From Chromobacterium violaceum ATCC 12472 (GTDB lineage: Bacteria; Pseudomonadota; Gammaproteobacteria; Burkholderiales; Chromobacteriaceae), in contig NC_005085.1 in NCBI RefSeq assembly GCF_000007705.1, forward strand, positions 1,931,752 to 1,995,751: DNA of 64,000 nt, in the 5' to 3' direction. Positions 23,624 through 38,074 of this stretch are shown piece by piece; the stretch's first letter is position 1, and every line of letters starts with the position of its first letter. The notes under the pieces are model-generated. The model searched no databases. It worked only from the letters and a program-made list of their open reading frames with translations, and was not told the DNA's origin. A program made the position numbers and the translations under genes.

Positions 23624-23724
23624 TTTGTTCTCGTGATTGCCTGGTGCGTGAAGGGCGGGATGCGCCCGGCCTGCCGGCTCGGGCGCATCGCAGTCGGTTG
23701 TCCGCCGATGGCGGGACATCTGGC

Positions 23725-24870
23725 TTAGCGCGGGGTGGCGACTTCCTGTTGGATGCGGTTCACTACATTGATCCCCATCGCGGTCCAGAAGTCCGAGCGT
23801 TCCGCATCGGCGAAGCGCTGTTCGTCGCGTTCAATGGCCTGATAGTCTTCGCTCAACATGAAGTCCTCCAGATCGTTCAGGCTGGAAAAAGCCATCAAGG
23901 TCACGCCGTCTATCTTGCTGCTGGCGGGGTGCCAGAACGGTTGGCCTTCCTGTTCCGGGCCGATCGCGTGCAACTGGACGTAGCGGCGGACATAACGCGC
24001 GGTGGCGGGTGTGGTGCGAACCAGGTCGGCGTGCTCGGCCAGCCATTGATGCTGGAATTCCTGACGGCTCAAGCCGGCGCGGCGCTGGTGGGTTTTGACC
24101 AGCAGGATGGGGTCTCGCTGAGTCGCGCTGGGAATGATGATGTGCTGGCGGGACAAAACCGGGGCCAATTCGCGGAAGATGGCCTTGTCTTCCGGGATGA
24201 TGGTGGCGGCGAGGCTGGGTTGGGAGAAGACGGCGCCCATGTCGTCGGTGCTTTTGAATCCCAGGTAGGCGATGCCGTCCCAGTCTGGGCGACGGTATGC
24301 CGGCACGTGGTCTACCACCGTATGGAACAGCTCGCCGTCATTGTCGACGGGCGGGAGGTACGGCAGCGGGCTGCCCTTGCTCGGGCCGAAAGCGAGGCGG
24401 TGCACCTGATCGTAGCGCACCATGCGCTGGATGCCGCCATCCTGCGGTTTTTGAGCATACAGGAAGCGCGGGCCATGCACTTTTCGCCAATACTCACCCC
24501 ATTTTTCAAACGATACGTTGACCGGGCTATCGAAAGCGGGGCGTTGATCGTGGCCAGCCGGATCCTGGATGGATTGGCCGTCGCGGTCGATCAGAAAGCC
24601 GGGGTCGCGCCGTCGCTCGCTGAGCGGCGAGTTGTCGGCCCGGGCGAGCAGGGTGCACAAGACGATCAGAGGGTCGCTTGCTGTCTGCAGGTCTTGCAGG
24701 CGCGGCGGACGGTAGTCGTATTCGTTGCGGGACAGCTTCATGTTGGATCCTTGCGTGTTGGAGAAGGCTCGAGGCTTCATTCCTTCGGCCTGGGCCGCTT
24801 GCGAAGCGAAGGGGGCCAGCGCTGCATACAGCAGGCTATGTTCCAGAAACGCGCGTCGCGACAGGTTCAT
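23725..24870 (-). CDS. Tat-exported protein with tandem EthD-like domains
   Basis: A 381-residue protein. It begins with NLSRRAFLEHSLLYAALAPFASQAAQA, a twin-arginine signal with a hydrophobic core and an Ala-x-Ala cleavage site. The mature part shows two EthD-like dimeric alpha/beta-barrel halves: one around FEKWGEYWRKVHGPRFLY (about 120-137) and one around RQEFQHQWLAEHADLV (about 272-287), each with the conserved H-G/H-x-x-L pattern. EthD proteins are accessory or catalytic proteins in ether and polyketide chemistry. Tat export implies folding, perhaps with a cofactor, before transport. The substrate is unknown. It is divergent from the 25-37 kb operon. Confidence 0.7.
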   Translation of the reverse strand: MNLSRRAFLEHSLLYAALAPFASQAAQAEGMKPRAFSNTQGSNMKLSRNEYDYRPPRLQDLQTASDPLIVLCTLLARADNSPLSERRRDPGFLIDRDGQSIQDPAGHDQRPAFDSPVNVSFEKWGEYWRKVHGPRFLYAQKPQDGGIQRMVRYDQVHRLAFGPSKGSPLPYLPPVDNDGELFHTVVDHVPAYRRPDWDGIAYLGFKSTDDMGAVFSQPSLAATIIPEDKAIFRELAPVLSRQHIIIPSATQRDPILLVKTHQRRAGLSRQEFQHQWLAEHADLVRTTPATARYVRRYVQLHAIGPEQEGQPFWHPASSKIDGVTLMAFSSLNDLEDFMLSEDYQAIERDEQRFADAERSDFWTAMGINVVNRIQQEVATPR

Positions 24871-25274
24871 GCGCCATCCCCTCCGTTGGCCACCGAGTGG
24901 AGCGTGCCGGATGGGGTGAGGCGGTCATGCCAAAGGGTGTTTTCAGCCCGGTCTTTATGACCTTCAAATATGATCGCATGCGAGTAATAACTATAGAAAT
25001 AGTATTTGATTATTGAAGATTTGGCCATGATTTGCCTATTCAATTGACATGCCCGCTCAGGGCTGGATGATTTTCATGGATCAGGTGCAATTTGTTTTAT
25101 CTTTTTGAAAAATAAGAAAAAATATTTCTATGATGTTCTAGTTAAATTTTTCCATCTGCGCTATTTTGCTGAATAGAATATACCATAATGAATAATTATG
25201 CTTGATGGATATTTATTACTAATGTAAATTCCGCCGCGGTGAATGGCTTTGTCACTTTTCCGCGGGAGCAGGTC
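24871..25274. promoter_or_regulatory. AT-rich divergent promoter region of the 25-37 kb operon
   Basis: A 404-base gap without a gene, strikingly AT-rich from about 24950 to 25240 compared with its neighbours. It holds an inverted repeat ACTAT-AGAA-ATAGT at 24990-25003, a TTGACA at 25044-25049 that could be a -35 element, and several A/T tracts suited to nucleoid-protein binding. It must drive the flavin monooxygenase operon rightward and the EthD/MFS pair leftward. The base composition suggests xenogeneic silencing or acquisition, which is an inference. Confidence 0.55.
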
Positions 25275-26933
25275 ATGGTGGTGAAACGTCGTACTTTTGA
25301 ACGCACTAGATTTGATGGCAATTCATTGATTGAAAGGGGAATTGTCATCGCTGGTGCGGGGTTGGTGGGGCTGGTGCTGGCTCTGGATCTGGCTAGGCGG
25401 GGGGTGCGCACGCTGGTGGTCGATCAGGATGACAAGGTTTCTGATGGATCGCGTGCGATTGTTTTTGCCAAGCGCAGTCTGGAAATACTGGGACGGCTGG
25501 GTTTGGGCGAGCAACTGTTGGAAAAAGGCGTCAGTTGGCATCTGGGCAAGGTGTTGCACGGAGACCGGCAGTTGTTCGAGTTCAATTATCTGCCTGAGCC
25601 GGGGCACCAGTACCCGGCCTTCATCAATCTTCAGCAGTACTATCTGGAGGAGTGGTTGATCGATGCCTGCCTGGCATCGGGCTTGGTCGAATTCCGCTGG
25701 GGGCATCGCGTTGCAGGCGTTCAGCGCGAGCCGCGCCGCGCCATTGTCGATATCGCAACCGACCAGGGCGGCTATCAGATCCATTGCGACTGGCTGGTGG
25801 CGTGCGATGGTGTCCGATCCTTTGTGCGCCAGGCGCTACAGCTGCCTTTCGAGGGACGGACGTTCAATGACCGCTTCCTGATCGCCGATGTGCGCATGCC
25901 TGCCGCTTTGCCTGCGGAGCGCCGCTTTTGGTTCTCGCCATCCTTCCATGAGGGGCAGTCAGTCCTGATCCACAAACAGCCTGATGATGTCTGGCGCGTC
26001 GATTTCCAGCTGGGGCCGGATGCAGACCCAGTGCTGGAGCGCGAGCCGGAGCGCGTGGCGGCCAGGCTGCGCAGGATGTTCGGCGACGATATCGATTTCG
26101 AACTTGAATGGGTCAGCGTCTATACCTTCCGTTGCCGCCGGCTGGCTCGCTTCGTGCATGGACCGGTGGTGTTCGCCGGAGACAGCGCGCATGAGGTTAG
26201 CCCTTTCGGCGGCCGCGGCGGAAATGGCGGCATTCAGGACGCTGACAACTTGGGTTGGAAGCTGGCTGAAATCATTACAGGACGGGCGGGGCCGGCTTTG
26301 CTGGACAGTTACGGCGAGGAGCGTGGTCTGGCGGCTGACGAGAATATTCTCAACTCCAGCCGCAGCGCTGACTTCATTACGCCGCGTTCGGAGCGCGCCA
26401 GGCTGCTCAAGGAGGCTGTGCTGCTGTTGTCCGCCGAGCAGGAGGCCATCCGCCCCATGGTCAATTCCGGACGGTTGTCGCGGCCGGCGTCGCTGGCGGG
26501 TTGCAGCTTGCTGCAGCCTGCCGGACATCGGGAAGGACCGGGGCCGGGCGATGCCGCTCTGGACGCGCCGGTGTCGCTGGCGGGCCAACCCGCCTGGCTG
26601 CTGGAGCGCATCGGCAACCGCTTCACTTTGCTGTATTTCGTCGATGGCGAGTCCGACGTGGATGCCGCGTGGCATTTCTGCCGCCTGCACGGCGCGGCGC
26701 TGTTGACGGTGGGCCGTTCGGGAAGCGAAGGCGGCGATGGCCGCATTCATGTTGTCGATGACGCCGGGCTGGCCCATGAGCGTTACCGAGCGGCGCAACG
26801 CCGCGTTTATCTGATCCGCCCCGACCAGCATATCTGCTATGCCGCCGACCTGCTTGACCCGGTCGAGCTGGCCGCGGCTCTGCGGCTGGCTTTGGGCCAC
26901 TCCGTTTCCTCCACTTTCGAAAGGCGCGCCTGA
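25275..26933 (+). CDS. FAD-dependent aromatic-type monooxygenase (PheA/TfdB/MhpA-like)
   Basis: A 552-residue class A flavoprotein hydroxylase using NAD(P)H and O2. Seen: FAD GxGxxG in VIAGAGLVGLVLALDLARRG near residues 23-42, the DG motif VACDGVRSFVRQ, and the ribityl/pyrophosphate motif FAGDSAHEVSPFGGRGGNGGIQDADN (split for length) near 300; the C-terminal thioredoxin-like domain of the phenol hydroxylase group follows. The ATG at 25275 follows GGAG; an earlier in-frame ATG has no site. It is the first gene of an eight-gene run. An aromatic or 3-hydroxyaryl substrate is likely from the family but unproven. Confidence 0.85.
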   Translation: MVVKRRTFERTRFDGNSLIERGIVIAGAGLVGLVLALDLARRGVRTLVVDQDDKVSDGSRAIVFAKRSLEILGRLGLGEQLLEKGVSWHLGKVLHGDRQLFEFNYLPEPGHQYPAFINLQQYYLEEWLIDACLASGLVEFRWGHRVAGVQREPRRAIVDIATDQGGYQIHCDWLVACDGVRSFVRQALQLPFEGRTFNDRFLIADVRMPAALPAERRFWFSPSFHEGQSVLIHKQPDDVWRVDFQLGPDADPVLEREPERVAARLRRMFGDDIDFELEWVSVYTFRCRRLARFVHGPVVFAGDSAHEVSPFGGRGGNGGIQDADNLGWKLAEIITGRAGPALLDSYGEERGLAADENILNSSRSADFITPRSERARLLKEAVLLLSAEQEAIRPMVNSGRLSRPASLAGCSLLQPAGHREGPGPGDAALDAPVSLAGQPAWLLERIGNRFTLLYFVDGESDVDAAWHFCRLHGAALLTVGRSGSEGGDGRIHVVDDAGLAHERYRAAQRRVYLIRPDQHICYAADLLDPVELAAALRLALGHSVSSTFERRA

Positions 26934-27139
26934 TGTCCAGCAATGTGCAAGCCCCTATGCAGCCGTCTCCCGACGAGCTGTTTTCCATGCTGCTGGAGGC
27001 CGGGCAGGACTTGCCGGACGAGCAGGCCAGGCTGGTCGATGCGCAGTTGCTGGTATTGCTGGCCAGCCGGGTCAACGACAGGGCGGCAATCGCCGATGCG
27101 ATCGAAACCGCCAGGCGGTTGGCGCAGCGATCCGACTAG
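26933..27139 (+). CDS. DUF2783 family small protein
   Basis: A 68-residue acidic helical protein: DELFSMLLEAGQDLPDEQARLVDAQLLVLLASRVNDR and the following helix match the DUF2783 pattern. Such proteins are found next to flavin monooxygenase genes and may be a partner subunit. The ATG overlaps the monooxygenase stop by one base (TGATG), implying coupled synthesis. No metal-binding or catalytic motif. Confidence 0.7.
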   Translation: MSSNVQAPMQPSPDELFSMLLEAGQDLPDEQARLVDAQLLVLLASRVNDRAAIADAIETARRLAQRSD

Positions 27140-27168
27140 CGAGCAACCATAAAAGATGGAGATGCTTC

Positions 27169-30100
27169 ATGGAAATTGACAATGGTTTTAGCGGTGCAGA
27201 CCGCTATGAAATCGGAATTTCCCGCCCGGGCGGCCGCATCATGTTGTCGGGAACGCAAGCCATCGTGCGGATGATGCTGGCTCAGGCCGCGGCGGATCGC
27301 GAGGCGGGCCTGAATACCGCGGGTTTCGCCAGCGGCTACCGGGGTTCGCCCTTAGGCGCGGTGGACATGGAGATGTGGAAGGCGAAGAGGGTTCTCGAGC
27401 AGGCGGGCATCCGCTTTCTGCCGGCGATCAATGAAGAGCTGGCCGCAACCGCCGTGCTCGGCACGCAACGGGTGGGCAGCGATGCCGACCGCAAGGTGGA
27501 TGGCGTGTTTGGCCTCTGGTATGGCAAGGGGCCGGGAGTGGATCGCGCCGGCGACGCGTTGCATCACGGCAATGCCTATGGCTCATCCGAGATGGGAGGC
27601 GTGCTGGTCATCGTCGGCGACGACCACGGCTGCGTGTCGTCATCGATGTCCCATCAGTCGGATCAGACTTTGATCGCCTGGGGCATGCCGGTCATCCATC
27701 CGGCCTCGGTCGCCGATTACGAAGCATACGGTTTGTGGGGCTGGGCGGCGTCGCGGCATTCCGGCTTGTGGATCGGATTCAAGGCCATCAGCGAAACAGT
27801 GGAAAGCTCGGTCTCCTGCCGCTCGGTCGAACGCCGCTCTTTCTCGCTGCCGCCGGTAGATCCGGGCAACGACGGCTTGCACTGGCGCTGGCCCGATTTG
27901 CCGGGGCCGCAGATGGAGCAGCGGATGGCGTTCAAGCTGGAAGCCTTTTCCGCCTTCGCCCGAGCCAATCCGTTGGACAAGCTTACCTTCGGCCAGGCTG
28001 CGCCGCGCTTGCTGATCGCTGCAGTCGGCAAGGCGCACGGCGACGTGATGGAGGCCTTGCGCCAGCTGGGCGCGGGCGAGGCCGAGCTGGAGTCGGCCGG
28101 CATCGCTTTATTGCAGGTCGGGCTGGTGTGGCCATTGTCTCCGTTGCTTGCGGAGCTGGCGGAGACGGCGGAAGCGGTACTGGTGGTCGAGGAGAAGGCT
28201 GCTGTAGCGGAGGCGCTGCTGAAGCAGCATCTGTACAACGTGCCGGAGGCGCGGCGGCCGGTAGTCATCGGCAAGGAGGATGAAGAGGGCCGGCCCTTGT
28301 TGCCGGTGGCGGAAGAGCTGCGCCCGTCCCGCTTGGCGCCGTTGCTGCTGGCGCGCTTGCAGGCGCTGGGCGTCAGCGCCGGCCTGCCGGCCTGCTGGCA
28401 ACAGCCGGTCTTGGATCATCCCGCCGGCTTGTTGAAGCGGACGCCTTATTTTTGTTCCGGCTGCCCGCACAATCTGTCGACATTGGTGCCCGAGGGCAGC
28501 CGGGCGCAACTAGGGATAGGCTGCCATGCGATGGCAGCCCGGATTCCGGAACGCCATACCAGCGGCAGCGTGCAGATGGGGGGGGAGGGCGTGGACTGGC
28601 TCGGCGCCGAAGGCTTCGTCGACACCGGCCACATCTTCCAGAACATGGGGGATGGCACTTTCTTCCACTCCGGGCATCTGGCGATCCGCCAGGCGGTGGC
28701 AGCCGGCAGCAACATCACTTACAAGCTGCTTTACAACGATGCGGTGGCGATGACCGGGGGGCAGCCCATCGACGGCAAGCTGACAGTGCCGCAAATCGTC
28801 AGGCTGGCGCTGGCGGAGCGGGTGGCCAGGGTGGTGGTGGTGGCCGACGATCCCGGACGATATGTCGGCGACAATGCCTTGCCTGGCGACACCCGCGTCT
28901 ATCATCGCGACCGCATGGACGAGGTGCAGCGTGAGCTGAGGGAGCTTAACGGAGTTTCGCTGTTGATCTACGACCAAGTCTGCGCGACCGAGGCCAGGCG
29001 GCGCCGCAAGCGCAAGCAGGCGCCGGCGCTGAACCGCAGCGTGGTGATCAACGAACAGGTCTGCGAGGGGTGCGGCGATTGCCAGAAAGCCTCCAACTGC
29101 CTGTCGGTTGTGCCGCTGAAGACGGATCATGGCGTCAAGCGGCGCATAGACCAGCATTCCTGCAATACCGATATGTCGTGCCTGAAGGGCTTTTGCCCCA
29201 GCTTCGTGACGCTGCGGGGGCGGCCTCGCGTCAAGCGGTCGGATGCCGAGCTGCAAAGAGCCGTCGGACAGGCGGTGGCGCGCTTGCCCGAACCCGGCGC
29301 GGCGCTGGGCACGGCGCCGTACGAAATACTGCTGACCGGCATTGGCGGTACCGGCGTAGTGACGGTGTCGTCCATCGTGGCGACCGCCGCGCATTTGCAG
29401 CAGGCCGCGGTATCGGTGCTCGATTTCACCGGTTTCGCGCAGAAGGGCGGTTCGGTGCTGAGCCACATCCGGCTGGCGAGCGACCGCGCGCAGTTACATC
29501 AGAACCGCATAGACCGGGGCGGCGCCGATGCCCTGATCGCCGCCGATTTGGTGGTGGCCACGGAGCGCGAGGCGCTGGAGTGCATCCGCGCCGGGAGGAC
29601 GCGCATCGCCGCCAACCTGCATGAGACCCAGGTTGGCCTGATGCTGCGCGATCCGACGCTGCAGGTCGACAGCGACGGAATGCTGTCTCTGTTGGAGAAG
29701 CGCAGCGGCGCGCAGGCGCTGGCGCTGGATGCGAAGGCGTTGGCCGAGCGCTTCGCCACTCCGCTGCAAGCCAATGTCTTGTTGCTGGGCTTCGCCTGGC
29801 AGGCCGGCCTGGTGCCGCTGCGGCTGGATGCCGTACGGCAGGCGATACGGCTGCAGGGAGGCAGCGGCGACGACAATCTGGCGGCCTTCGATTGCGGCCG
29901 CCTGGCCGCCGGCGATCCGGACGCGCTGCGGCGGCTGGATGGCGGCGAGCGGACGCAGGATGAGTTCGACGATTATGAGCGGCTGAAGTTGAGCCGCATG
30001 CGCCTTCTGGCCGAATACCAGAATCCGGAGTACGCGGCCCGCTATCTGCGGCGGCTGGGCAAGGTGGAGCAGGCCACCCGCGACTGGCAGGGCGAAGACG

Positions 30101-30669
30101 CCGTCCAGGCGGAGGCGCTGCGGATCGCCGTCGCGCGCAATCTTTACAAGCTGATGGCTTGCAAGGACGAGTACGAGGTCGCGCGGCAACTGAGCGACAG
30201 GGGGTTTCTGCAGCGTTTGGCCGAGGAGCACGGCAGCCTTGATGGCTTGCGCTTCCATCTGGCGCCGGACGTATTCAACTTCTGGCGCCGACAGCCGCGC
30301 AAGGTGGCTGTCGGCCGCTGGATCCTGCCGTTGATGCGTGGTCTGGCCCGGTTGCGTTTCCTGAGGGGCTCGATGTTCGATCCTTTCGCCGGCCAGGAAG
30401 ACCGCCGGGCGGAACGGCAGTTGCTGGCCGACTACGAGTCCTTGCTGGACACCCTCTGCGCCGGCCTTGAGCGCGGCAAGCTGGCCATCGCGGTGAAGTT
30501 GGCCAGGTTGCCGGAGTCAGTGCGCGGTTACGGCCACGTCAAGCTGGCCGCCATTCCGGCGATGGGCAAAAGGAAGGCCGAATTGCTGCTGGCCTTCTCC
30601 GAACCGTCGACCGGACAGCCCCTGCCGGAGCAGGCGCAGCGACGGCATATCCCGATCGTGGCCAGATAA
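27169..30669 (+). CDS. Fused indolepyruvate-type 2-oxoacid:ferredoxin oxidoreductase
   Basis: A 1166-residue single-chain enzyme combining the alpha (IorA-like) and gamma (IorB-like) parts. It would oxidatively decarboxylate a 2-oxo acid to an acyl-CoA. Seen: the N-terminal pyrimidine-binding domain (TAGFASGYRGSPLG), the ThDP motif NMGDGTFFHSG...YNDAVAMTGG near residues 492-530, Cys clusters CEGCGDC near 632 and CNTDMSCLKGFCPS near 664 for Fe-S, and the gamma-domain LLTGIGGTGVVTV near 720. Best-known homologues act on aryl pyruvates in amino-acid breakdown. The start at 27169 follows GGAG. It is the longest gene of the operon and is intact. Confidence 0.88.
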   Translation: MEIDNGFSGADRYEIGISRPGGRIMLSGTQAIVRMMLAQAAADREAGLNTAGFASGYRGSPLGAVDMEMWKAKRVLEQAGIRFLPAINEELAATAVLGTQRVGSDADRKVDGVFGLWYGKGPGVDRAGDALHHGNAYGSSEMGGVLVIVGDDHGCVSSSMSHQSDQTLIAWGMPVIHPASVADYEAYGLWGWAASRHSGLWIGFKAISETVESSVSCRSVERRSFSLPPVDPGNDGLHWRWPDLPGPQMEQRMAFKLEAFSAFARANPLDKLTFGQAAPRLLIAAVGKAHGDVMEALRQLGAGEAELESAGIALLQVGLVWPLSPLLAELAETAEAVLVVEEKAAVAEALLKQHLYNVPEARRPVVIGKEDEEGRPLLPVAEELRPSRLAPLLLARLQALGVSAGLPACWQQPVLDHPAGLLKRTPYFCSGCPHNLSTLVPEGSRAQLGIGCHAMAARIPERHTSGSVQMGGEGVDWLGAEGFVDTGHIFQNMGDGTFFHSGHLAIRQAVAAGSNITYKLLYNDAVAMTGGQPIDGKLTVPQIVRLALAERVARVVVVADDPGRYVGDNALPGDTRVYHRDRMDEVQRELRELNGVSLLIYDQVCATEARRRRKRKQAPALNRSVVINEQVCEGCGDCQKASNCLSVVPLKTDHGVKRRIDQHSCNTDMSCLKGFCPSFVTLRGRPRVKRSDAELQRAVGQAVARLPEPGAALGTAPYEILLTGIGGTGVVTVSSIVATAAHLQQAAVSVLDFTGFAQKGGSVLSHIRLASDRAQLHQNRIDRGGADALIAADLVVATEREALECIRAGRTRIAANLHETQVGLMLRDPTLQVDSDGMLSLLEKRSGAQALALDAKALAERFATPLQANVLLLGFAWQAGLVPLRLDAVRQAIRLQGGSGDDNLAAFDCGRLAAGDPDALRRLDGGERTQDEFDDYERLKLSRMRLLAEYQNPEYAARYLRRLGKVEQATRDWQGEDAVQAEALRIAVARNLYKLMACKDEYEVARQLSDRGFLQRLAEEHGSLDGLRFHLAPDVFNFWRRQPRKVAVGRWILPLMRGLARLRFLRGSMFDPFAGQEDRRAERQLLADYESLLDTLCAGLERGKLAIAVKLARLPESVRGYGHVKLAAIPAMGKRKAELLLAFSEPSTGQPLPEQAQRRHIPIVAR

Positions 30670-30736
30670 CGCCGGCGGTTGCCGTGTTCCGGCCATGGAG
30701 TTGAACGATGATTGACAACAGAGAAGGCAAGCGACG

Positions 30737-32233
30737 ATGACGACGGTTCAGGCCTCTTTTTCCGCCACGGGCACGCCGCGGCGTGATTCCGCGGTATGGC
30801 AGGCCATAGAGTGGCTGGTCGATAGCGGCAGTTTTTACCAGCTGGACGCGCTGAGCGAGCATGATTGCCAGCACTTCGGCACCGCCGGCCGCAAGGTACC
30901 CGGCGATGGCCTGGTGACCGGGCATGGCCGGATCGACGGCCGGCCTGTGCTGGTTTACGCCCATGACCGCGATTTTCTCGGCGGCAGTTCCAGCCGGGTG
31001 CATGCGGTGCGGATAGGCAAGTTGCTGGACATGGCGCTGCAGCTTGGCCTGCCGGTGATAGGCCTCAACGATTCCTCCGGGATTCGGATACACGAAGGAG
31101 TCGACGCCGGCGCGCAATTCAGCGAGGTGTTCCACAAGACGGTCAAGGCTTCCGGCGTGGTGCCGCAGATCTCGGTGATCCTGGGCGACTGCGCCGGGGG
31201 CGCGGCCTATGCGCCGGCCTTGACCGACTTCATCGTCATGGCGGGCGCGGAGTCGACGATGTTCCTGACCGGGCCGTCGGTGATCCGTTCGGCGACGGGC
31301 GAAAGCGTCACCAAGGAGGAGATCGGCGGCGCGCAGCTGCATGCCGAAGTCACTGGCTTGGCTCATTTCAATTGTGATGGACGCGAGCAGGCGGTGGCGC
31401 TGGTGCGGGAGCTGCTCGGTTACCTGCCGCAGAACAACGCCAGTCCGACGCCGCGCGTCGATCGCGGGGATACCGGTCCCAGGCGCACCCCGCGCCTGGA
31501 GCGGCTGATTCCAGCCCATCAGAACGAACCCTACGATGTGCTGGATGTCGTCGCCGAAATCGCCGACAACAACGAATTCCTCGAAATCCAGGCCCAGTAC
31601 GCCCCAAACCTGGTGACCGGCTTCGCCCGCTTCGGCGGGCGCACTGTTGGCGTGCTGGCCAGCCAGCCGTTGCAGCGCGCAGGTTGTCTCGATGTCGACT
31701 CCTCGCTGAAGGGCGCTCGCTTCGTGCGCTTGTGCGACAGCTTCGATATCCCGCTGTTGACGCTGCTGGACGTGCCCGGCTACTTGCCCGGCCGCGAACA
31801 GGAGACGCGCGGCATCATCGGCGCCGGGGCCAAGCTGCTGCACGCCTATTGCGAGGCCAGCGTGCCCAAGCTGGCCATCGTGCTGCGCAAGGCTTACGGC
31901 GGCGCTTATCCGACGCTGGCCAATTGGTCCGCGACCGACTTCACCTTCGCATTGGAGCAGGCGGAAATCGCCGTGATGGGGCCGCAAGGGGCGGTCGACA
32001 TCATTTTCCGCAGAGAGCTGGCCGCCGCGGCGGATCCTGCGTCATTGAGGGAGAAGCTGCTGGACGACTACCGCGCAGCGCATGCCAATGCGTCGTATTC
32101 CGCCAAGAAAGGTTATGTGGATGGCTTGCTGGCTGCCGCTGAAGTGCGCAACGCCGTGCTGTCCCATCTGCAGCTGCTGGCGGACAAGGTGGGCGGCACC
32201 CCGGCCCGCCGCCATTCCAACATCCCGCTTTAG
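30737..32233 (+). CDS. Acyl-CoA carboxylase carboxyltransferase subunit (PccB-like)
   Basis: A 498-residue carboxyltransferase with both crotonase-fold halves. Seen: N-half oxyanion loops VIGLNDSSGIRIHEG and ILGDCAGGAAYAPALTDF, and C-half LTLLDVPGYLPGREQETRGIIGAGAKLL and IVLRKAYGGAY (split), as in propionyl-CoA and methylmalonyl-CoA type subunits. It transfers carboxyl from carboxybiotin to an acyl-CoA. The substrate (acetyl-, propionyl-, branched or aryl-acyl-CoA) cannot be told from these motifs. The biotin carboxylase and biotin carrier are separate genes further downstream. Confidence 0.87.
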   Translation: MTTVQASFSATGTPRRDSAVWQAIEWLVDSGSFYQLDALSEHDCQHFGTAGRKVPGDGLVTGHGRIDGRPVLVYAHDRDFLGGSSSRVHAVRIGKLLDMALQLGLPVIGLNDSSGIRIHEGVDAGAQFSEVFHKTVKASGVVPQISVILGDCAGGAAYAPALTDFIVMAGAESTMFLTGPSVIRSATGESVTKEEIGGAQLHAEVTGLAHFNCDGREQAVALVRELLGYLPQNNASPTPRVDRGDTGPRRTPRLERLIPAHQNEPYDVLDVVAEIADNNEFLEIQAQYAPNLVTGFARFGGRTVGVLASQPLQRAGCLDVDSSLKGARFVRLCDSFDIPLLTLLDVPGYLPGREQETRGIIGAGAKLLHAYCEASVPKLAIVLRKAYGGAYPTLANWSATDFTFALEQAEIAVMGPQGAVDIIFRRELAAAADPASLREKLLDDYRAAHANASYSAKKGYVDGLLAAAEVRNAVLSHLQLLADKVGGTPARRHSNIPL

Positions 32234-32248
32234 AAAGGTCTGTATCTC

Positions 32249-33466
32249 ATGAAGATTCCCCGTTCCAAGGAAGACGATTACAGCCAGGCAATCATCGCGC
32301 AACGCCACGGCTGGCTGGAGACGTTCACCGGGCAGCATTTTCCGTATTTGCAGGGACGGCCCTACGAGCCGGGCTCGGTGCTGGGCACTTGCGAGAACTA
32401 TGTCGGCACCGTCGGCGTGCCGGTCGGCCTGGCCGGGCCGCTCGCCATTCACGGCAGCCGGGCGCAGGGGGAGTTCGTCGTGCCGATGGCGACGACGGAG
32501 GGCGCGCTGGTGGCGTCCTTCTCGCGCGGCATGAGCATCATCACCGAAAGCGGAGGTTGCCATGTGCTGAGCCCGGGCAATGTCCTGCCGGGCGAGACCG
32601 GGCAGCCGTACCGCGTGCTGGGCGACGCGCTGACCAAGATCTCCGCCGTGGTGCTGCGGGACGCGGCCGAGGCCGGCCGGTTCGACGGCTGGTTGCGAGA
32701 ACACCTGCCGCAGATCGTCGCCGCAGCCAACGCCACCAGCCGATTCGCCAGGCTGCTGGAAGTCAGCCCGCTGTTCCATGGCGACTTGGTCGGCCTCGCC
32801 TTCACCTACTCCACAGACCAGGCGATGGGGCTGAATATGGCGACCAAGGCCAATGAAGCGGCTTGTCGCTATATCCTCGCCCACAGCGGCGGCTTGGCCA
32901 TCGACTATTTCAACACTTTGGGAGGGGACAAGCGCTTTGTGCCGGACCAGGCCAAGGGACGGTACGTGTCGGCCAGCGTCAGAATCCCGGCCCAGTTGCT
33001 GCAACAGCGGCTGCGCACCACGGCGCACAGGATGCGGCGCTTCCTCGGAGCCTGCAATATCCTGCTGGCTCAGCGCGGCGCCACGGCGCCCAATATCCAT
33101 ATCGCCAATGCGCTGACGGCCATGTTCATCGCCTGCGGCCAGGACCCGGCTTTCGTCACGGTGTCGTTCAAGAACGCCAGCACCATGTTCGAGCCGCAGA
33201 GCAACGGCGATCTGCTCGCCTCTGTGACGCTGCCCAATTTGTTGCTGGGCACGGTCGGCGGCGGAGTCAAGCTGCCGGGGCAGCAGGAATGCCTGCGGAT
33301 GCTGGGCTGCGAGGACGACGTGATCAAGCTGGCCGAGATCATCGCCGCCGTCGCGCTGGCCGGCGAAGTCTCGGTGGCGGGCGCCGTGACGGCGGGCGAG
33401 TTCACGCATGCGCACACCGTGCTGGGGCGCGGGCTGCACGGCGACAATGCGGAGCGCAAGGCATGA
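32249..33466 (+). CDS. Hydroxymethylglutaryl-CoA reductase homologue
   Basis: A 405-residue reductase. Seen: the substrate-binding ENYVGTVGVPVGLAGPL, VPMATTEGALVAS with catalytic Glu84, LNMATKANEA, catalytic Lys228 in GGDKRF, Asp299 in ACGQDPAF, LGTVGGGVKLPGQQECLRMLG and a C-terminal THAHTVLGRG with His389. All four catalytic residues are present. The C-terminal motif and the GTVGGG loop look more like class I (archaeal/eukaryotic) enzymes than the degradative class II enzyme of Pseudomonas mevalonii. No mevalonate kinase or HMG-CoA lyase is nearby, so the direction and true substrate are open. It sits between the carboxylase subunits and overlaps the biotin carboxylase by four bases. Confidence 0.85.
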   Translation: MKIPRSKEDDYSQAIIAQRHGWLETFTGQHFPYLQGRPYEPGSVLGTCENYVGTVGVPVGLAGPLAIHGSRAQGEFVVPMATTEGALVASFSRGMSIITESGGCHVLSPGNVLPGETGQPYRVLGDALTKISAVVLRDAAEAGRFDGWLREHLPQIVAAANATSRFARLLEVSPLFHGDLVGLAFTYSTDQAMGLNMATKANEAACRYILAHSGGLAIDYFNTLGGDKRFVPDQAKGRYVSASVRIPAQLLQQRLRTTAHRMRRFLGACNILLAQRGATAPNIHIANALTAMFIACGQDPAFVTVSFKNASTMFEPQSNGDLLASVTLPNLLLGTVGGGVKLPGQQECLRMLGCEDDVIKLAEIIAAVALAGEVSVAGAVTAGEFTHAHTVLGRGLHGDNAERKA

Positions 33467-34953
33467 TACGGCGGCTGCTGCTCTGTTGCCGCGGCGAGAT
33501 CGCGCTGCGCTTCATCCGCACTTGCCGCTTGATGGGTGTGGAAACCGTGGCGGCTTATCCGGCGGAGGATGACGGCCACCCCTACGTTCTGGCCGCCGAT
33601 CAGCGCTTTCCCATCGAGGCGGCCAGCGCCGGCAGCGCGATGGCTGAAGTGCTGCAAGTCGCCCGCTTGGCGCGGGTGGACGCGATCGCGCCGGGCTATG
33701 GCCCTCTGGCGGAAAACGCCGAATTCGCCGCGGCTTGCGCCGAGGCCGGTTTCATCTTCGTCGGTCCCAGGCCGGAGGCCATCCGGCAGTCCGGCGACAA
33801 GCTGCGCGCCCGCGAGGCCGCCTGCCTGGCCGGCGTGCCGGTGATCCCCGGCGGCCATCCTGGGGACGGGCTGGAGCAATCGCTGGATCTGGCGCGGGAA
33901 ATCGGCTTTCCGGTGCTGATCAAGGCGGTGATGGGAGGCGGCGGCCGCGGCATACGGGTGGTGGAGGCGCCGGAGGCCTTCGCCGGCGCGCTCGATGAAG
34001 TGAGGAGTGAGGCGCTTTCCGCATTCGGCTGCGGCGATGTCTATCTCGAGCGGTTCCTCGGCACCGCCATCCGCCATATCGAGGTGCAGGTGCTGGGCGA
34101 CAAGCACGGCAATGTGCTGCATCTGGGCGACCGCGGCTGCAGCGTCCAGCGTCGGCGGCAAAAACTGGTGGAGGAAGCGCCGGTGCCGGGACTGGACGCG
34201 GCGCTGAGGAACGAATTGCGGCTGGCGGCGCTGGCGATCGCGCGGCAGCTGGGCTACGACAGCGCCGGCACCGTCGAATTCCTGGTTGCCGGCGACGGGC
34301 GTTTCTACTTCATCGAAATGAACGCGCGCATCCAGGTGGAGCATCCGGTGACGGAGGCGATCACCGGGATCGATCTGGTCGAGCAGATGATTCATGTCGC
34401 CGGCGGCGGACGTTTGTCGCTGCGCCAGGATGACATCGAATTCCGCGGCCATGCGGTCGAATTCAGGCTCTGCGCCGAAGACCCGCGCAATCAGTTCTTT
34501 CCGGCTGCCGGACGGGTCGCCAGCTATGCCGTGCCGGAGGGCGAGGGCGTGCGGCTGGATTCGGGCGTGGCCAGCGGCGTCGCGCAGTCGCCGCGATTCG
34601 ACAGCTTGTGCGCCAAGCTCATCGTCCATCAGTCCAGCCGTGAACGCGCGCTGGCGCGCGCCTCGCATGCGCTGGGAGAGTTCCGCCTGTTCGGCTTTCC
34701 GACCAATGTCCCGTTCCATCACTGGTTGCTGGAGCAGCCGCAGTTCCGCGACGGCAGCTACGACTTGTCGTTGCTGGAGGATTTCGAGCTGCCGCCGGAG
34801 CGACTGCATGCCGTCGACCGAAGGGCGGTGTTTGCCGCGGCGCTGGCGACGGCGCTGGCTGGCGTGGCCGGGCGCAGGCCGGAGGGCTCGGCCGCGGTGT
34901 CGGGCTGGAAACTGCGCAACGATCCGCTGCTGGCGGCCGGCGCGCGAGGCTAG
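33463..34953 (+). CDS. Biotin carboxylase subunit of an acyl-CoA carboxylase
   Basis: A 496-residue ATP-grasp enzyme that carboxylates biotin with ATP and bicarbonate. Seen: glycine-rich ATP loop KAVMGGGGRGIRVV, RHIEVQVLGDKHGNVLHLGDRGCS (split), EEAPVPG, and FIEMNARIQVEHPVTE. Two N-terminal motifs deviate: the usual ANRGEIA reads CCRGEIA and HPGYGFLSEN reads APGYGPLAEN. It starts at the ATG that overlaps the HMG-CoA reductase stop (ATGA). It is shorter than fused carboxylase alpha chains because its carrier domain is encoded separately by the next gene. Confidence 0.87.
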   Translation: MIRRLLLCCRGEIALRFIRTCRLMGVETVAAYPAEDDGHPYVLAADQRFPIEAASAGSAMAEVLQVARLARVDAIAPGYGPLAENAEFAAACAEAGFIFVGPRPEAIRQSGDKLRAREAACLAGVPVIPGGHPGDGLEQSLDLAREIGFPVLIKAVMGGGGRGIRVVEAPEAFAGALDEVRSEALSAFGCGDVYLERFLGTAIRHIEVQVLGDKHGNVLHLGDRGCSVQRRRQKLVEEAPVPGLDAALRNELRLAALAIARQLGYDSAGTVEFLVAGDGRFYFIEMNARIQVEHPVTEAITGIDLVEQMIHVAGGGRLSLRQDDIEFRGHAVEFRLCAEDPRNQFFPAAGRVASYAVPEGEGVRLDSGVASGVAQSPRFDSLCAKLIVHQSSRERALARASHALGEFRLFGFPTNVPFHHWLLEQPQFRDGSYDLSLLEDFELPPERLHAVDRRAVFAAALATALAGVAGRRPEGSAAVSGWKLRNDPLLAAGARG

Positions 34954-34964
34954 GAGGGGAGTGG

Positions 34965-35537
34965 ATGAACGATAGAGTGGACAGAGAGGGCGGCGTGGCG
35001 TTGCGGTTGCACGCCGCTCTGCCCGCAGGCTGGAGCGGCGGGATCGAACTGCGCGGCGATGGCGAGGCGGGTTACCGGTTGAGCGCGGAAGGGCTGCCGC
35101 CGGTTGACGGCGAACTATTGTATTTCGACGCGGACTCGTTCCGGCAGGGCAAGGCCAGCCGTCTGCAATGCCGGCTGGACGGGATGCTGGTCGAGTGCTC
35201 GGTGATGGCTGGGCCTTCCGGCGCCGTCTGCGTACTGGCGGACGGGTTCTACAGCGAAGTCCGCTTGGCCGATCCGTCATCGTCGCGTTTTTCCTCGCGC
35301 CGCTCCGGGCGAGCATCGTCGGAGGAGGGCGTGTTGGTCGCGCCGATGCCGGCGACGGTCACCGAGCTGCTGGTGGCGCCGGGCCAGGCCGTGACGGCAG
35401 GCCAGCCGGTGGGGCGGATAGAAGCGATGAAAATGGTGATGACGCTGACCGCCCCGAGGGATGGCGTGGTGGGCGAAGTGGCGGTGGCGCCGCGGGATCC
35501 GGTTCTCGCCGGACAGCGGCTGATGGTGTTCGAGTAG
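34965..35537 (+). CDS. Biotin carboxyl carrier protein
   Basis: A 190-residue protein. Residues 115-190 form a biotinyl/lipoyl domain with EAMKM and the biotinylated Lys156, preceded by VLVAPMPATVTELLVAPGQAV. The first 100 residues form an uncharacterised beta-rich region (ELLYFDADSFRQGKASRLQCRLDGML) that may bridge the carboxylase and transferase subunits, as the BT domain does in fused acyl-CoA carboxylases. It lies 11 bases after the biotin carboxylase gene. Confidence 0.87.
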   Translation: MNDRVDREGGVALRLHAALPAGWSGGIELRGDGEAGYRLSAEGLPPVDGELLYFDADSFRQGKASRLQCRLDGMLVECSVMAGPSGAVCVLADGFYSEVRLADPSSSRFSSRRSGRASSEEGVLVAPMPATVTELLVAPGQAVTAGQPVGRIEAMKMVMTLTAPRDGVVGEVAVAPRDPVLAGQRLMVFE

Positions 35538-35581
35538 GCGGTCCCGCGGGGCCGAATCATTACGCTTGAGGAGAAACGATC

Positions 35582-36967
35582 TTGAGTCTTGAAGCAAGCA
35601 TTGCCCGTTACGCGGCGACGATCCAGTTTGAACAATTGACGCCAGGCGCGGTAGAGATCGCCTTGCAGGCCATCACCGACATCCTGGGGGTGACGATAGC
35701 GGGCGCGGAGGATCCGGACGTCGCCATCCTCGCCGGGGTGGTCGAGAGCTGGGGCGGCGCGCCCCAGGCTACCGTGCTGGGGCGACGGGCGCGGTTGCCT
35801 GCGCCGATGGCGGCGCTGCTCAATGGCGCGGCATCGCGCGTTCTGGATTTCGACGATGTGGCGGATCCGCTTGGCACGCATCCCAGCGTCGCGCTGTTTC
35901 CGGCATTGCTGGCCATCGCCGAACAGACCCCGGGTGTCAGCGGCCGGGAATTCATCACCGCCTTCGCCATTGGCCAAGACCTGTCGGTGCGCTTGGCGGA
36001 GGCGCGCCGGGAGACGCTGCTGCAAAGCGGCCGCTATGACTTGAGCAAGGTGATCGCCGCTACCGCGGCTGCGGGCCGGTTGCATCGGCTCAGCGAGGAA
36101 CAGTTGCGTCATGCGATGGGCATCGCCTATACCTCGGCGCTTGGAGAGGCGCAGTGCATGATAGACGGCGCGCCTACGGTGTCCTATCAGCAGGGGCTGG
36201 TCGCTTCCAATGCCGTCAAGGCGGTGCTGCTGGCCAAGGCGGGTTTCGGCGGCACGGTGAATTTCCTCACCGGGCGCTGGGGCTATTATTCCTCGTTCGA
36301 GCCGGGCTCCGATCTGTCCAGGGTCTCGGGCGGGCTGGGAGAGCGCTTCGCCGGCGAGGGCGGCGTGGCGTTCAAGCCTTATCCGACCTGCCGGCCCAAT
36401 ACCTCGGCAGCCGCTGTGACGCTGGCATTGACCGGCGGCCGTCCCTATCGGGCCGAAGAGATCGAAACCATCTCGATCCGGACCAACCGGCAGATATACG
36501 ATCTGGTCAGCGCGCCGGTGGAACAAAAACGCGAGCCGCAGACCATAGTCGATGCGCGCTTCAGCATCGCCTACAATGTCGCGGTGGCGTTGGCGACCGG
36601 AGACGTGTTCATCGACGATTTCACCGAGGAGGCGATACGGCGCCCGGACGTGATCGCGATCAGCCGTCTGGTCCATCCGGAAACTGCTGCTGAGTGTGAG
36701 ATTCCTGAGTTGGGCACCCACGGCCTGATCAAGGTGGAGATCCGGCTGCGCGACGGCTCTGTGTTGCAGGGCCAGATCGACTATCCGAAGGGCAATCCGC
36801 GGAATCCGATGAGCCGGGACGAAATCCAAGCCAAGTTCGTGAAATGCGTTTCACGCAGCGGACAGACCGCGCTGGCGGGCCGGGCTCAGGCCATATTGCG
36901 CGCGATAGACGGTCTGCCGGAACAGGATAGCCCGTTCAGCAGCGTGCTGGGCCTGCTGTGCGACTAA
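35582..36967 (+). CDS. MmgE/PrpD family protein
   Basis: A 461-residue member of the family of 2-methylcitrate dehydratase, cis-aconitate decarboxylase and iminodisuccinate epimerase. Seen: NGAASRVLDFDDVADPLGTHPSVALFPALLA with the family's DFDD and HPS pattern, and FKPYPTCRPNTSAA. The start is TTG at 35582, preceded by AGGAG at eight bases; no better ATG lies near. As last gene of the operon it could hydrate, dehydrate or decarboxylate the di- or tricarboxylic intermediate. The exact reaction is not predictable from sequence. Confidence 0.82.
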   Translation: MSLEASIARYAATIQFEQLTPGAVEIALQAITDILGVTIAGAEDPDVAILAGVVESWGGAPQATVLGRRARLPAPMAALLNGAASRVLDFDDVADPLGTHPSVALFPALLAIAEQTPGVSGREFITAFAIGQDLSVRLAEARRETLLQSGRYDLSKVIAATAAAGRLHRLSEEQLRHAMGIAYTSALGEAQCMIDGAPTVSYQQGLVASNAVKAVLLAKAGFGGTVNFLTGRWGYYSSFEPGSDLSRVSGGLGERFAGEGGVAFKPYPTCRPNTSAAAVTLALTGGRPYRAEEIETISIRTNRQIYDLVSAPVEQKREPQTIVDARFSIAYNVAVALATGDVFIDDFTEEAIRRPDVIAISRLVHPETAAECEIPELGTHGLIKVEIRLRDGSVLQGQIDYPKGNPRNPMSRDEIQAKFVKCVSRSGQTALAGRAQAILRAIDGLPEQDSPFSSVLGLLCD

Positions 36968-36995
36968 GCGCCGCTTGATGGGCCATCGAGTGGGC

Positions 36996-37020
36996 ATCCC
37001 GCGCGCGCCGCGGGATTTTT
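36996..37020. terminator. Bidirectional terminator between the operon and the MarR gene
   Basis: Stem ATCCCGCG / CGCGGGAT with a five-base loop and a TTTT tail, 28 bases after the MmgE/PrpD stop. The convergent MarR gene ends immediately beyond it. Confidence 0.8.
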
Positions 37021-37472
37021 CATTCCCTGATCCTGTCGGCGGCCCGGGAGATGGCGTCCAGCGTCAGATCCGTGATGTGCAGCGCCTCGGCGCTGACATC
37101 CTGCAGCAGCCGTTCGCGGATGTCGCGCACGACTTGATCGACTTGCGCCGCCATTGTCTTGCCTGCCTCGGTCAGCATCAGCACTTTGGCGCGGCGGTCG
37201 GTTGGGTCGTCGCGGCGCACGACCAGCCCGGAACTTTCCAAATGGTCGATCAGCCTGACGAGAGACTGGCCCTCGATGCCGAGATGTTCGGCGAGCGCGC
37301 GCTGGCGCAGTCCTTCTCCCAGCCGGCCAATCAGCCATAGCGGCGTCGTGGTAGCTTCGGACAGGCCGTACTTCTTCAGCTCTTCATCGGCGACTTGGCG
37401 CCATAGGCGGGCGGCGCGCTGCAATCGCAGGCAGAAACTGTCGTTGGCGACAGAGAGCAGGCTGATGGACAA
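37020..37472 (-). CDS. MarR family transcriptional regulator
   Basis: A 150-residue winged-helix protein. Seen: LRQRALAEHLGIEGQSLVRLIDHLESSGLVVRRDDPTDRRAKVLMLTEAG (recognition helix and DxR wing, split), flanked by dimerisation helices. It faces the end of the 25-37 kb operon, with its own promoter carrying a long inverted repeat. It may govern that operon, although no copy of the repeat is evident near 25.1 kb. Resemblance to SlyA-like regulators makes an aromatic acid ligand plausible. Confidence 0.85.
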   Translation of the reverse strand: MSISLLSVANDSFCLRLQRAARLWRQVADEELKKYGLSEATTTPLWLIGRLGEGLRQRALAEHLGIEGQSLVRLIDHLESSGLVVRRDDPTDRRAKVLMLTEAGKTMAAQVDQVVRDIRERLLQDVSAEALHITDLTLDAISRAADRIRE

Positions 37473-37511
37473 GAATTTCTCCCGTTGGCGGTGGCGCTTT
37501 CGCGAACCGGG

Positions 37512-37550
37512 TTGGCGTATCGCGGCAGATCATGCCATATGATACGCCAA
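37512..37550. promoter_or_regulatory. Long inverted repeat upstream of the MarR gene
   Basis: TTGGCGTATC at 37512-37521 is the exact reverse complement of GATACGCCAA at 37541-37550, with 19 bases between. It lies 40 bases upstream of the MarR start and is a candidate operator for autoregulation. Confidence 0.55.
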
Positions 37551-37590
37551 CATCGGCTCTGCGATGAAACGTCGCGTTCGGGGAGAAAGG

Positions 37591-38052: not shown

Positions 38053-38074
38053 TTTTCCTGCTCCATTCTTAACT

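What the first reader, a model, noticed from the sequence alone, without database searches (positions are those of the whole stretch)
25275..37472. Uncharacterised catabolic or biosynthetic operon: monooxygenase, 2-oxoacid oxidoreductase, acyl-CoA carboxylase, HMG-CoA reductase and MmgE/PrpD
Eight same-strand genes with tight spacing combine a flavin hydroxylase and DUF2783, a fused indolepyruvate-type oxidoreductase (2-oxo acid to acyl-CoA), a complete three-gene biotin carboxylase, an HMG-CoA reductase and an MmgE/PrpD protein. I know of no described pathway that uses all of these. A logical reading: an aryl or branched 2-oxo acid becomes acyl-CoA, is carboxylated to a dicarboxyl-CoA, converted by MmgE/PrpD and reduced (or oxidised) by the HMG-CoA reductase homologue. 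No thiolase, lyase, mevalonate kinase or polyketide gene is present, so known mevalonate and leucine routes do not fit. This is the best candidate for a new system in the window.
Basis: partly seen in the sequence, partly recalled or inferred. Interest (0 to 1): 0.88.

Follow-up and report, generated by a model that had tools for sequence, protein, structure and literature searches.

The report
Mobile reductive-carboxylation gene cassette
A block of genes in this bacterium, also found in insect-killing Photorhabdus and in plasmids of root-nodule bacteria, looks like one uncharacterised pathway that carboxylates and then reduces an acyl-CoA, and the HMG-CoA-reductase-like enzyme at its centre belongs to an unusual branch of its family.

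Summary
Eight same-strand genes (window 25275-36967) are closely spaced: flavin hydroxylase, DUF2783, fused 2-oxoacid oxidoreductase (IOR), carboxyltransferase, HMGR-like protein, biotin carboxylase, biotin carrier, MmgE/PrpD. They sit in a ~15.2-kb island (about 22431-37592) with an EthD-domain protein, an MFS transporter and a MarR regulator. HMGR and EthD are absent from 18 of 18 other species genomes of the genus; the site lacks the island in 5 of 5 relatives read.

Chance adjacency does not explain it. The five-gene core recurs in the same order in three Photorhabdus and two Sinorhizobium plasmids opened, each with an IOR. The four core enzymes put in trees form cassette clades. The carboxyltransferase is propionyl-CoA-carboxylase type. 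The HMGR has a shorter substrate loop and swapped basic residues. The hydroxylase plus DUF2783 resembles MhaAB, which makes homogentisate.

Most likely mechanism (inferred): 2-oxo acid -> acyl-CoA (IOR) -> alpha-carboxy-acyl-CoA (carboxylase) -> 2-hydroxymethyl acid (HMGR-like) -> 2-methylene acid (MmgE/PrpD), with hydroxylation as tailoring. Substrate and product are unproven. I rate it a new variant of a known kind of pathway, fairly interesting.

The parts
22433..23719 (-). MFS transporter (likely exporter), outer gene of the island
   Evidence: Pfam MFS_1; lies inside the stretch missing from 5 of 5 relatives read
23725..24741 (-). EthD-domain protein with two EthD stretches, divergent from FMO; start placed at 24741 because two Photorhabdus homologues lack the longer N-terminus (open frame reaches 24870)
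   Evidence: Pfam EthD; 44-45% identical homologues beside the FMO genes of two Photorhabdus genomes; absent from 18 of 18 other genus genomes
24871..25274 (.). Low-GC (41%) divergent promoter region with two + strand sigma-70-like sites (25044-25071, 25105-25134)
   Evidence: consensus matches only
25275..26933 (+). FAD-dependent aromatic hydroxylase (PRK08132 subfamily, MhaA-like)
   Evidence: NCBIfam NF006002 681.6 bits, cut-off 416; a relative beside HmgA and FAH genes in L163
26933..27139 (+). DUF2783, putative coupling protein (MhaB-like by size and position)
   Evidence: Pfam PF10932; 60-aa MhaB coupling protein described in PMC3053370 (passages)
27169..30669 (+). Fused 2-oxoacid:acceptor (indolepyruvate-type) oxidoreductase
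   Evidence: NCBIfam NF009588 1816 bits, cut-off 952; cassette IORs form one clade, 100/100
30737..32233 (+). Acyl-CoA carboxylase carboxyltransferase (beta), PCC/YCC type with altered acyl pocket
   Evidence: Pfam; PDB relatives; pocket alignment
32249..33466 (+). HMG-CoA reductase homologue, diverged class I subfamily
   Evidence: Pfam 275.7 bits; PDB class I relatives; residue analysis; tree
33463..34953 (+). Biotin carboxylase
   Evidence: Pfam Biotin_carb_N, CPSase_L_D2, Biotin_carb_C
34965..35537 (+). Biotin carboxyl carrier protein (EAMKM motif at the expected biotinylation site)
   Evidence: Pfam Biotin_lipoyl; alignment
35582..36967 (+). MmgE/PrpD protein (TTG start), own subfamily
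   Evidence: Pfam PF03972 and PF19305; tree; active-site differences
36996..37016 (+). Terminator-like hairpin after the operon
   Evidence: 8 pairs, 6 GC
37020..37472 (-). SlyA-like MarR regulator inside the island
   Evidence: Pfam and NCBIfam (SlyA model below its cut-off); 64-65% identical homologue upstream of the carboxyltransferase in 3 of 3 Photorhabdus loci, none found in the two Sinorhizobium stretches

Best explanation
The island is a horizontally acquired biosynthetic cassette. Shown: the gene set, its boundaries, its recurrence in three genera, and cassette clades for the four core enzymes put in trees. Inferred chemistry, in gene order: IOR oxidatively decarboxylates an amino-acid-derived 2-oxo acid to an acyl-CoA. 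The three-part biotin carboxylase carboxylates its alpha carbon, giving a substituted malonyl-type CoA half-thioester. The diverged HMGR reduces the thioester to the primary alcohol (a 2-hydroxymethyl acid) or stops at the aldehyde. The MmgE/PrpD protein then eliminates water, or otherwise acts beside the carboxylate, to give a 2-methylene (2-substituted acrylic) acid. In the window and in Photorhabdus an MhaAB-like hydroxylase, and in Sinorhizobium perhaps a P450-like protein, tailors the molecule. EthD works on a product, MFS exports it and MarR controls expression (roles of these three are guesses from family names).
For: The core order carboxyltransferase-HMGR-BC-BCCP-MmgE is identical in the window, 3 Photorhabdus loci and the 2 Sinorhizobium plasmids opened of 9 hit. 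IOR lies directly upstream in Sinorhizobium. IOR with FMO and DUF2783 lies beside MmgE in L035 and elsewhere in the genome in G387 (another contig) and G388 (same contig, some 35 kb off). Cassette clades: HMGR SH-aLRT 100; IOR 100/100, carboxyltransferase 100/100, MmgE 99/100, FMO 93/90, the last under the tool's 95 mark. The carboxyltransferase scores 436-512 bits in the 24 best rows, PCC/ACC/YCC-type chains, and 188-206 against the methylcrotonyl/geranyl-CoA chains, so alpha-carboxylation is expected. HMGR keeps Glu, Lys and His in 6 of 6 cassette sequences. The residues that align with human Arg590 and Lys692 (numbering and roles recalled) are Lys and Arg in 6 of 6, so positive charge for a substrate carboxylate is kept. 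The loop segment has 13 residues in 6 of 6 against 16 in 116 of 116 other sequences. ATP-driven carboxylation plus reduction favours biosynthesis. The two closest non-cassette IORs in the tree sit beside Lrp/AsnC regulators, fitting amino-acid-derived 2-oxo acids.
Against: No substrate, product, expression or enzyme datum was found in any call. In the window HMGR the class I catalytic Asp is Gln, and in Sinorhizobium Asn, while the three Photorhabdus keep Asp, so reductase activity of this copy is not certain. MmgE/PrpD lacks the His of the WH/FH site (present in 8 of 11 generic rows) and the K-x-x-H site (7 of 11), so its reaction may not be dehydration. The carboxyltransferase keeps, in 6 of 6, the Phe reported for enzymes acting on acyl-CoAs of four carbons or less (rule from passages of PMC5187497; my residue mapping), which speaks against bulky acyl groups. 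FMO, DUF2783, EthD and MarR are missing from the two Sinorhizobium stretches read, and in Photorhabdus the set is not one operon. A relative of FMO+DUF2783 lies in a catabolic homogentisate locus (L163). BC and BCCP were not put in trees, and BCCP is only 24-32% identical.
Confidence: 0.38

Rival explanations
1. A catabolic operon for a hydroxyaryl acid: MhaAB-like FMO+DUF2783 makes a homogentisate-type hydroquinone, IOR handles an arylpyruvate, and the other enzymes break down the side chain, under MarR control with MFS as an uptake system.
For: FMO and DUF2783 lie side by side in 5 of 5 generic loci read; in one of them (L163) homogentisate dioxygenase and fumarylacetoacetase genes follow. 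MhaAB of P. putida U is described as a 3-hydroxyphenylacetate 6-hydroxylase, and its LB400 homologues lie by hmg genes (passages of PMC3053370). MarR and MFS fit catabolism too.
Against: No ring-cleaving dioxygenase family among the island genes scanned. Carboxylation costs ATP and HMGR consumes reductant, which breakdown rarely needs. Sinorhizobium carries the core without the hydroxylase pair in the stretches read.
Confidence: 0.2
2. A leucine/isovalerate-to-mevalonate route: IOR makes isovaleryl-CoA, the carboxylase acts on 3-methylcrotonyl-CoA, MmgE/PrpD hydrates to HMG-CoA and HMGR makes mevalonate (or the reverse).
For: Gene names fit in outline: IOR types can use branched 2-oxo acids (recalled), and HMGR is a genuine class I relative with Glu, Lys and His kept.
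Against: The carboxyltransferase is PCC-type, not MCC-type. No acyl-CoA dehydrogenase or enoyl-CoA hydratase among the island genes scanned. The substrate loop is shortened and re-patterned. Eighteen of 18 other genus genomes lack the gene, so isoprenoids of the genus do not depend on it.
Confidence: 0.06
3. The same core makes itaconate or a close relative: 2-oxoglutarate to succinyl-CoA, carboxylation, reduction to 2-hydroxymethylsuccinate and dehydration by an MmgE/PrpD protein related to cis-aconitate decarboxylase.
For: Solved relatives of the MmgE/PrpD protein rank B. subtilis IRG1 (119-124 bits), IDS-epimerase (102), cis-aconitate decarboxylases (82-93), then PrpD (34-38); the kept Phe in the carboxyltransferase suits a small acyl group; HMGR keeps basic residues for a distal carboxylate.
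Against: The aromatic hydroxylase pair has no role. The MmgE/PrpD protein lacks sites typical of the decarboxylase group. The IOR family name points to arylpyruvates.
Confidence: 0.08
4. Separate functions brought together by chance within one acquired island.
For: Photorhabdus splits the set in two stretches, and FMO of the window is about as similar to generic FMOs (45-51% in L158, L162-L164; 38% in L161) as to the Photorhabdus ones (50-51%).
Against: Five-gene core order identical in three genera and clade support for four core enzymes; overlapping or short gaps.
Confidence: 0.03

Closest known systems
3-hydroxypropionate cycle segment: acetyl-CoA carboxylase plus malonyl-CoA reductase (recalled)
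   Same: Biotin carboxylation of an acyl-CoA followed by two-step reduction of the half-thioester to a 3-hydroxy acid and later loss of water
   Different: Here the reductase is an HMGR homologue, the acyl source is an IOR, the dehydratase candidate is MmgE/PrpD, and the genes form a mobile cluster with tailoring genes
YCC-based alkylmalonyl-CoA supply (MccB, stambomycin; PMC5187497, passages read)
   Same: Secondary-metabolism alpha-carboxylase of the PccB type with altered specificity position 421
   Different: No polyketide synthase family among the island genes scanned; position 421 is Pro, the Phe at the MccB Gly161 position is kept, and the product seems to be reduced
MhaAB 3-hydroxyphenylacetate 6-hydroxylase (PMC3053370, passages read)
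   Same: FAD hydroxylase of about 550-566 aa followed by a 60-70 aa partner protein
   Different: No homogentisate dioxygenase in the island; linked to a carboxylase/HMGR module
Degradative and biosynthetic HMG-CoA reductases (classes II and I)
   Same: Class I sequence family; catalytic Glu, Lys and His positions kept
   Different: Own long-stemmed clade, loop three residues shorter, Arg/Lys swap, Asp position Gln/Asn/Asp; no mevalonate genes in the island
MmgE/PrpD enzymes: cis-aconitate decarboxylase, PrpD, iminodisuccinate epimerase
   Same: Both MmgE/PrpD domains and the HPS motif
   Different: Separate clade; lacks the WH/FH and K-x-x-H sites of most generic rows

Membership tests
Class I HMG-CoA reductase | Sequence family match above curated Pfam cut-off | tested here: met
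   275.7 bits against 27; but TIGR00533 equivalog only 237.1 of 441.8 bits
Class I HMG-CoA reductase | Catalytic Glu, Lys, Asp, His quartet (roles recalled) | tested here: not met
   Window copy has Glu, Lys, His but Gln at the Asp position; Sinorhizobium Asn; the three Photorhabdus copies have all four
Class I HMG-CoA reductase | Canonical substrate cis-loop | tested here: not met
   13 residues in 6 of 6 cassette sequences against 16 in 116 of 116 others
Class I HMG-CoA reductase | Reduces HMG-CoA to mevalonate | not testable with these tools
   needs enzyme assay
Methylcrotonyl-CoA carboxylase (leucine route) | MCC-type carboxyltransferase | tested here: not met
   206 bits or less to MCC chains against 512 to a PCC beta chain
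Propionyl-CoA/acyl-CoA alpha-carboxylase (YCC) | PccB-type carboxyltransferase plus biotin carboxylase and carrier | tested here: met
Propionyl-CoA carboxylase | Asp at PccB position 421 | tested here: not met
   Pro in 6 of 6 cassette sequences, Asp in 7 of 9 generic ones (position from passages of PMC5187497)
MhaAB two-component hydroxylase | MhaA-like flavoprotein followed by small partner | tested here: met
   FMO then DUF2783, overlapping by 1 bp
MhaAB two-component hydroxylase | Sequence identity of FMO and DUF2783 to MhaA and MhaB | not tested
   MhaA/MhaB sequences not in hand; sizes and order agree
MhaAB two-component hydroxylase | 3-hydroxyphenylacetate as substrate | not testable with these tools
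   needs assay
cis-Aconitate decarboxylase / PrpD (MmgE/PrpD) | MmgE_PrpD N and C domains | tested here: met
cis-Aconitate decarboxylase | Active-site His and Lys/His sites beyond the HPS motif (roles recalled) | tested here: not met
   RYDL and TVxYQQ replace the WH/FH and K-x-x-H sites
Indolepyruvate-type 2-oxoacid oxidoreductase | PRK13029 family over cut-off | tested here: met
   1816.4 bits, cut-off 952

The most novel reading that the evidence does not exclude
A previously undescribed four-step pathway converts amino-acid-derived 2-oxo acids (possibly arylpyruvates) to 2-hydroxymethyl and 2-methylene acids, tropate/atropate-like or itaconate-like electrophiles. It uses an alpha-carboxylase and an HMG-CoA reductase re-purposed as a substituted-malonyl-CoA reductase, and is spread by horizontal transfer among insect, plant and environmental bacteria.
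Probability: 0.27. Interest if true: 0.8.

Novelty: new variant of a known kind. Interest (0 to 1): 0.62.

Why it matters
If the core chemistry is right, it adds a new use of the HMG-CoA reductase fold (reducing malonyl-type thioesters) and a genetically compact route from amino acids to branched hydroxy acids or reactive 2-methylene acids. The cassette also gives a concrete handle for finding an unknown small molecule shared by Photorhabdus, the window's bacterium and Sinorhizobium from nodulating plants. The core enzymes can be assayed in vitro, so the question is directly testable.

Tried and rejected
Rejected: mevalonate or leucine route (PCC-type carboxyltransferase, altered HMGR loop, gene absent from the rest of the genus). 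Rejected: loss of the catalytic Asp as a hallmark of the whole subfamily. I first read it so, but the Photorhabdus copies keep Asp. Rejected as core: the NRPS, PhzF and deaminase genes upstream of MarR in Photorhabdus; no such families among the island genes scanned, and the NRPS stretch is in pieces in L035. Rejected: a functional link between the HMGR and DUF2783 hits 20 kb apart in G084; that HMGR lies outside the cassette clade and its neighbours look, by eye, like another cluster type.

Led nowhere: the EthD structure model had mean pLDDT 33.7 and was not used. There was no PDB sequence match for EthD or IOR at E 0.001, no Rfam match at gathering score in 22000-38100, and no inverted repeat of 18 or more within 60 bp. 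Ten literature searches were counted. Judged by title and start of abstract, none listed a paper on this gene set; (MmgE PrpD + HMG-CoA reductase + acyl-CoA carboxylase) returned none at all. One candidate, solanimycin PMC9765074, proved unrelated in the passages seen. The library holds only open-licence papers, so this does not show that nothing is in print.

Tree cautions printed by the tool: the HMGR tree is the quick method; long branches are flagged in all five trees; the carboxyltransferase note names the window copy meeting the Photorhabdus ones. A flaw (one cassette sequence, L167, counted among the others) was put right; the counts given are.
Full report
1. What is there. The genome is one contig of 4,751,080 bases with one HMGR gene. 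I recall this length as that of Chromobacterium violaceum ATCC 12472; no call names it. Gaps between the eight genes run from -4 to 67 bp. A terminator-like hairpin (8 pairs, 6 GC) follows MmgE/PrpD at 36996. The 41% GC stretch before FMO holds two + strand sigma-70-like sites. Such sites are not clearly more frequent in the region than in shuffles (promoter-like 4 found, mean 2.5, sd 1.5; terminator-like 11 found, mean 11.7).

2. Boundaries. HMGR is found in 1 of 19 genomes of the genus (the window's own), and so is the EthD-domain gene at 23725. The pyrD flank was present in 19 of 19. I read five of the 18 relatives at that site. In 5 of 5 the arginyl-transferase gene and the glycine-zipper gene flank the place without the island, 72-75 bp apart in four and about 1.6 kb apart in the fifth. 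DNA similarity stops at 22426-22436 on the left and resumes at 37591-37593 on the right. The acquired unit is therefore about 15.2 kb: MFS, EthD, the eight-gene operon and MarR. Its GC (0.646) does not stand out from the rest of the window (0.658).

3. Recurrence. A scan of genome contigs kept 80 loci of 190 confirmed. Three Photorhabdus species match HMGR at 67-68%, the other 77 at 42% or less. In plasmids, 36 records match; 9 do so at 60-80%, all listed as Sinorhizobium at 66%. I opened two of the nine. The order carboxyltransferase-HMGR-biotin carboxylase-BCCP-MmgE is the same in all five loci. MarR (64-65%) lies upstream of the carboxyltransferase in the three Photorhabdus and was not found in the two Sinorhizobium stretches. 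IOR lies directly upstream in Sinorhizobium. In Photorhabdus heterorhabditis, FMO-DUF2783-IOR lies convergent beside MmgE. In two other Photorhabdus genomes, EthD, FMO, DUF2783 and IOR form a separate stretch, beside MFS, SDR and OYE-type genes (Pfam in G388; same by eye in G387). The genome of L035 was not held. The cassette is rare in the samples searched. Apart from the window, no genome passed 46% identity for HMGR among 369 class members, or 42% among those of 398 phylum members that passed E 1e-60. Of 119 family members of G387 only two matched at all: G387 with the cassette (and a second HMGR), and G391 with the second type.

4. Co-inheritance. Identities to the window: HMGR 66-68%; carboxyltransferase 59-62%, MmgE 53-54%, IOR 52-56%, biotin carboxylase 52-54%, FMO 50-51%, EthD 44-45%, DUF2783 29-31%, BCCP 24-32%. 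Cassette sequences form one clade in the five trees made: HMGR 6 rows of 121, SH-aLRT 100, stem 1.81 (quick method); IOR 6 of 25, 100/100; carboxyltransferase 6 of 15, 100/100; MmgE 6 of 17, 99/100; FMO 4 of 9, 93/90, below the tool's mark of 95. BC, BCCP, DUF2783, EthD and MarR were not put in trees. The generic rows came from samples of 114-143 genomes and from five DUF2783 loci. The tool flags long branches in all five trees. In the IOR tree Sinorhizobium branches first and the window pairs with Photorhabdus (100/100).

5. HMGR. The nearest solved relatives are class I enzymes. Across 122 distinct sequences Glu and Lys are invariant, His is kept in 121 (one gap, outside the cassette) and Asp in 115. 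The seven exceptions are the window (Gln), the two Sinorhizobium (Asn), L019 (Asn), L168 and L169 (Ala) and L027 (Glu). The three Photorhabdus cassette copies keep Asp. In the window and Sinorhizobium an Asp stands one residue earlier (TDQ, TDN). Fourteen columns shared by at least 80% of the 116 other sequences differ in all six cassette sequences. Two of these are an Arg-to-Lys and a Lys-to-Arg change at positions aligning with human Arg590 and Lys692 (numbering and role in binding the HMG carboxylate recalled). The loop segment starting GGDKR has 13 residues in 6 of 6 against 16 in 116 of 116. I infer a substrate that still carries a carboxylate but is not HMG-CoA.

6. Carboxylase. The beta subunit belongs with propionyl-/acetyl-CoA carboxylases. 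PMC5187497 (passages read) reports Asp421 of PccB and Gly161 of MccB (Phe in all enzymes known for acyl groups of four carbons or less) as specificity positions. In the cassette Asp421 is replaced by Pro inside a motif PTLAN followed by a one-residue deletion, in 6 of 6. The Phe is kept in 6 of 6 by my mapping. The first points to a changed acyl group, the second against a bulky one, so the substrate is open.

7. MmgE/PrpD. Solved relatives rank B. subtilis IRG1 (119-124 bits), IDS-epimerase (102), cis-aconitate decarboxylases (82-93) and PrpD (34-38). The HPS motif is kept. The WH/FH-type His (8 of 11 generic rows) and the K-x-x-H site (7 of 11; two of the rows are identical) are RYDL and TVxYQQ here. 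Elimination of water beside a carboxylate is the reaction the family suggests, but the altered sites make this the weakest step of the model.

8. FMO plus DUF2783. DUF2783 was found in 7 of 185 class genomes, the window's included. I read five of the other six, and in 5 of 5 an FMO of 38-51% identity lies next to it. In one of them, L163, the run is MarR, MBL-fold, FMO, then homogentisate dioxygenase and fumarylacetoacetase (families confirmed). In L158 a GST-family gene is near; I confirmed no homogentisate gene in the other loci. PMC3053370 (passages read) describes MhaAB as a two-component 3-hydroxyphenylacetate 6-hydroxylase, with a 566-aa flavoprotein and a 60-aa coupling protein. That DUF2783 is the MhaB family is my inference from size and place.

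9. Reading. In gene order the four enzyme types spell a short path from a 2-oxo acid to a 2-hydroxymethyl and then 2-methylene acid. The pair of costs, ATP for carboxylation and reductant for HMGR, suggests synthesis rather than breakdown. The aryl version fits FMO and the IOR family name; the small-acyl or succinyl version fits the kept Phe and the MmgE relatives. I cannot choose between them from sequence. The confidence of 0.38 is for the chemistry. That the set is one functional, horizontally moved module I hold at about 0.9.

Noticed in passing
L180 (G387:C15:11000-29000), L181 (G391:C30:101000-119000), L157 (G084:C5:93000-112500): A second HMGR-containing cluster type: a UbiA gene, an HMGR domain (inside ORFs of about 850 and 790 aa in L180 and L181, Ala at the class I Asp position), a PPDK_N/PEP-utilizers protein, an AMP-binding enzyme and, by eye, CDP-alcohol phosphotransferase-like genes. 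Families were scanned in L180 only; L181 and L157 look similar by eye. I know of no description of it and did not search for one.
   Followed up: partly
L034 58-5925, L036 1-7183, L035 1-7232: Two-module NRPS (L034) with PhzF-like and, in L035 and L036, deaminase genes divergent from MarR next to the Photorhabdus cassette; in L035 the NRPS stretch is in pieces.
   Followed up: partly
L036 15293-21034 and L034 15168-21092: Very large open reading frame beside the Photorhabdus cassette; the L036 copy matches toxin-type Pfam domains (Tox-PLDMTX, glycosyltransferase). Not studied further.
   Followed up: no
L146 1-2092, L147 173-2914: Small gene trio upstream of the Photorhabdus MFS-SDR-OYE genes that looks by eye like lasso-peptide maturation genes; the one member scanned had no Pfam match.
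   Followed up: no
L032 8231-8992: Weak P450 match (E 0.0035, below Pfam's cut-off, 253 aa) directly upstream of IOR on the Sinorhizobium plasmid, where the window has FMO and DUF2783; possibly truncated.
   Followed up: partly
G000:C1:305051-308482 (L118): The window's genome has a second fused IOR, 46% identical, outside the cassette clade.
   Followed up: no
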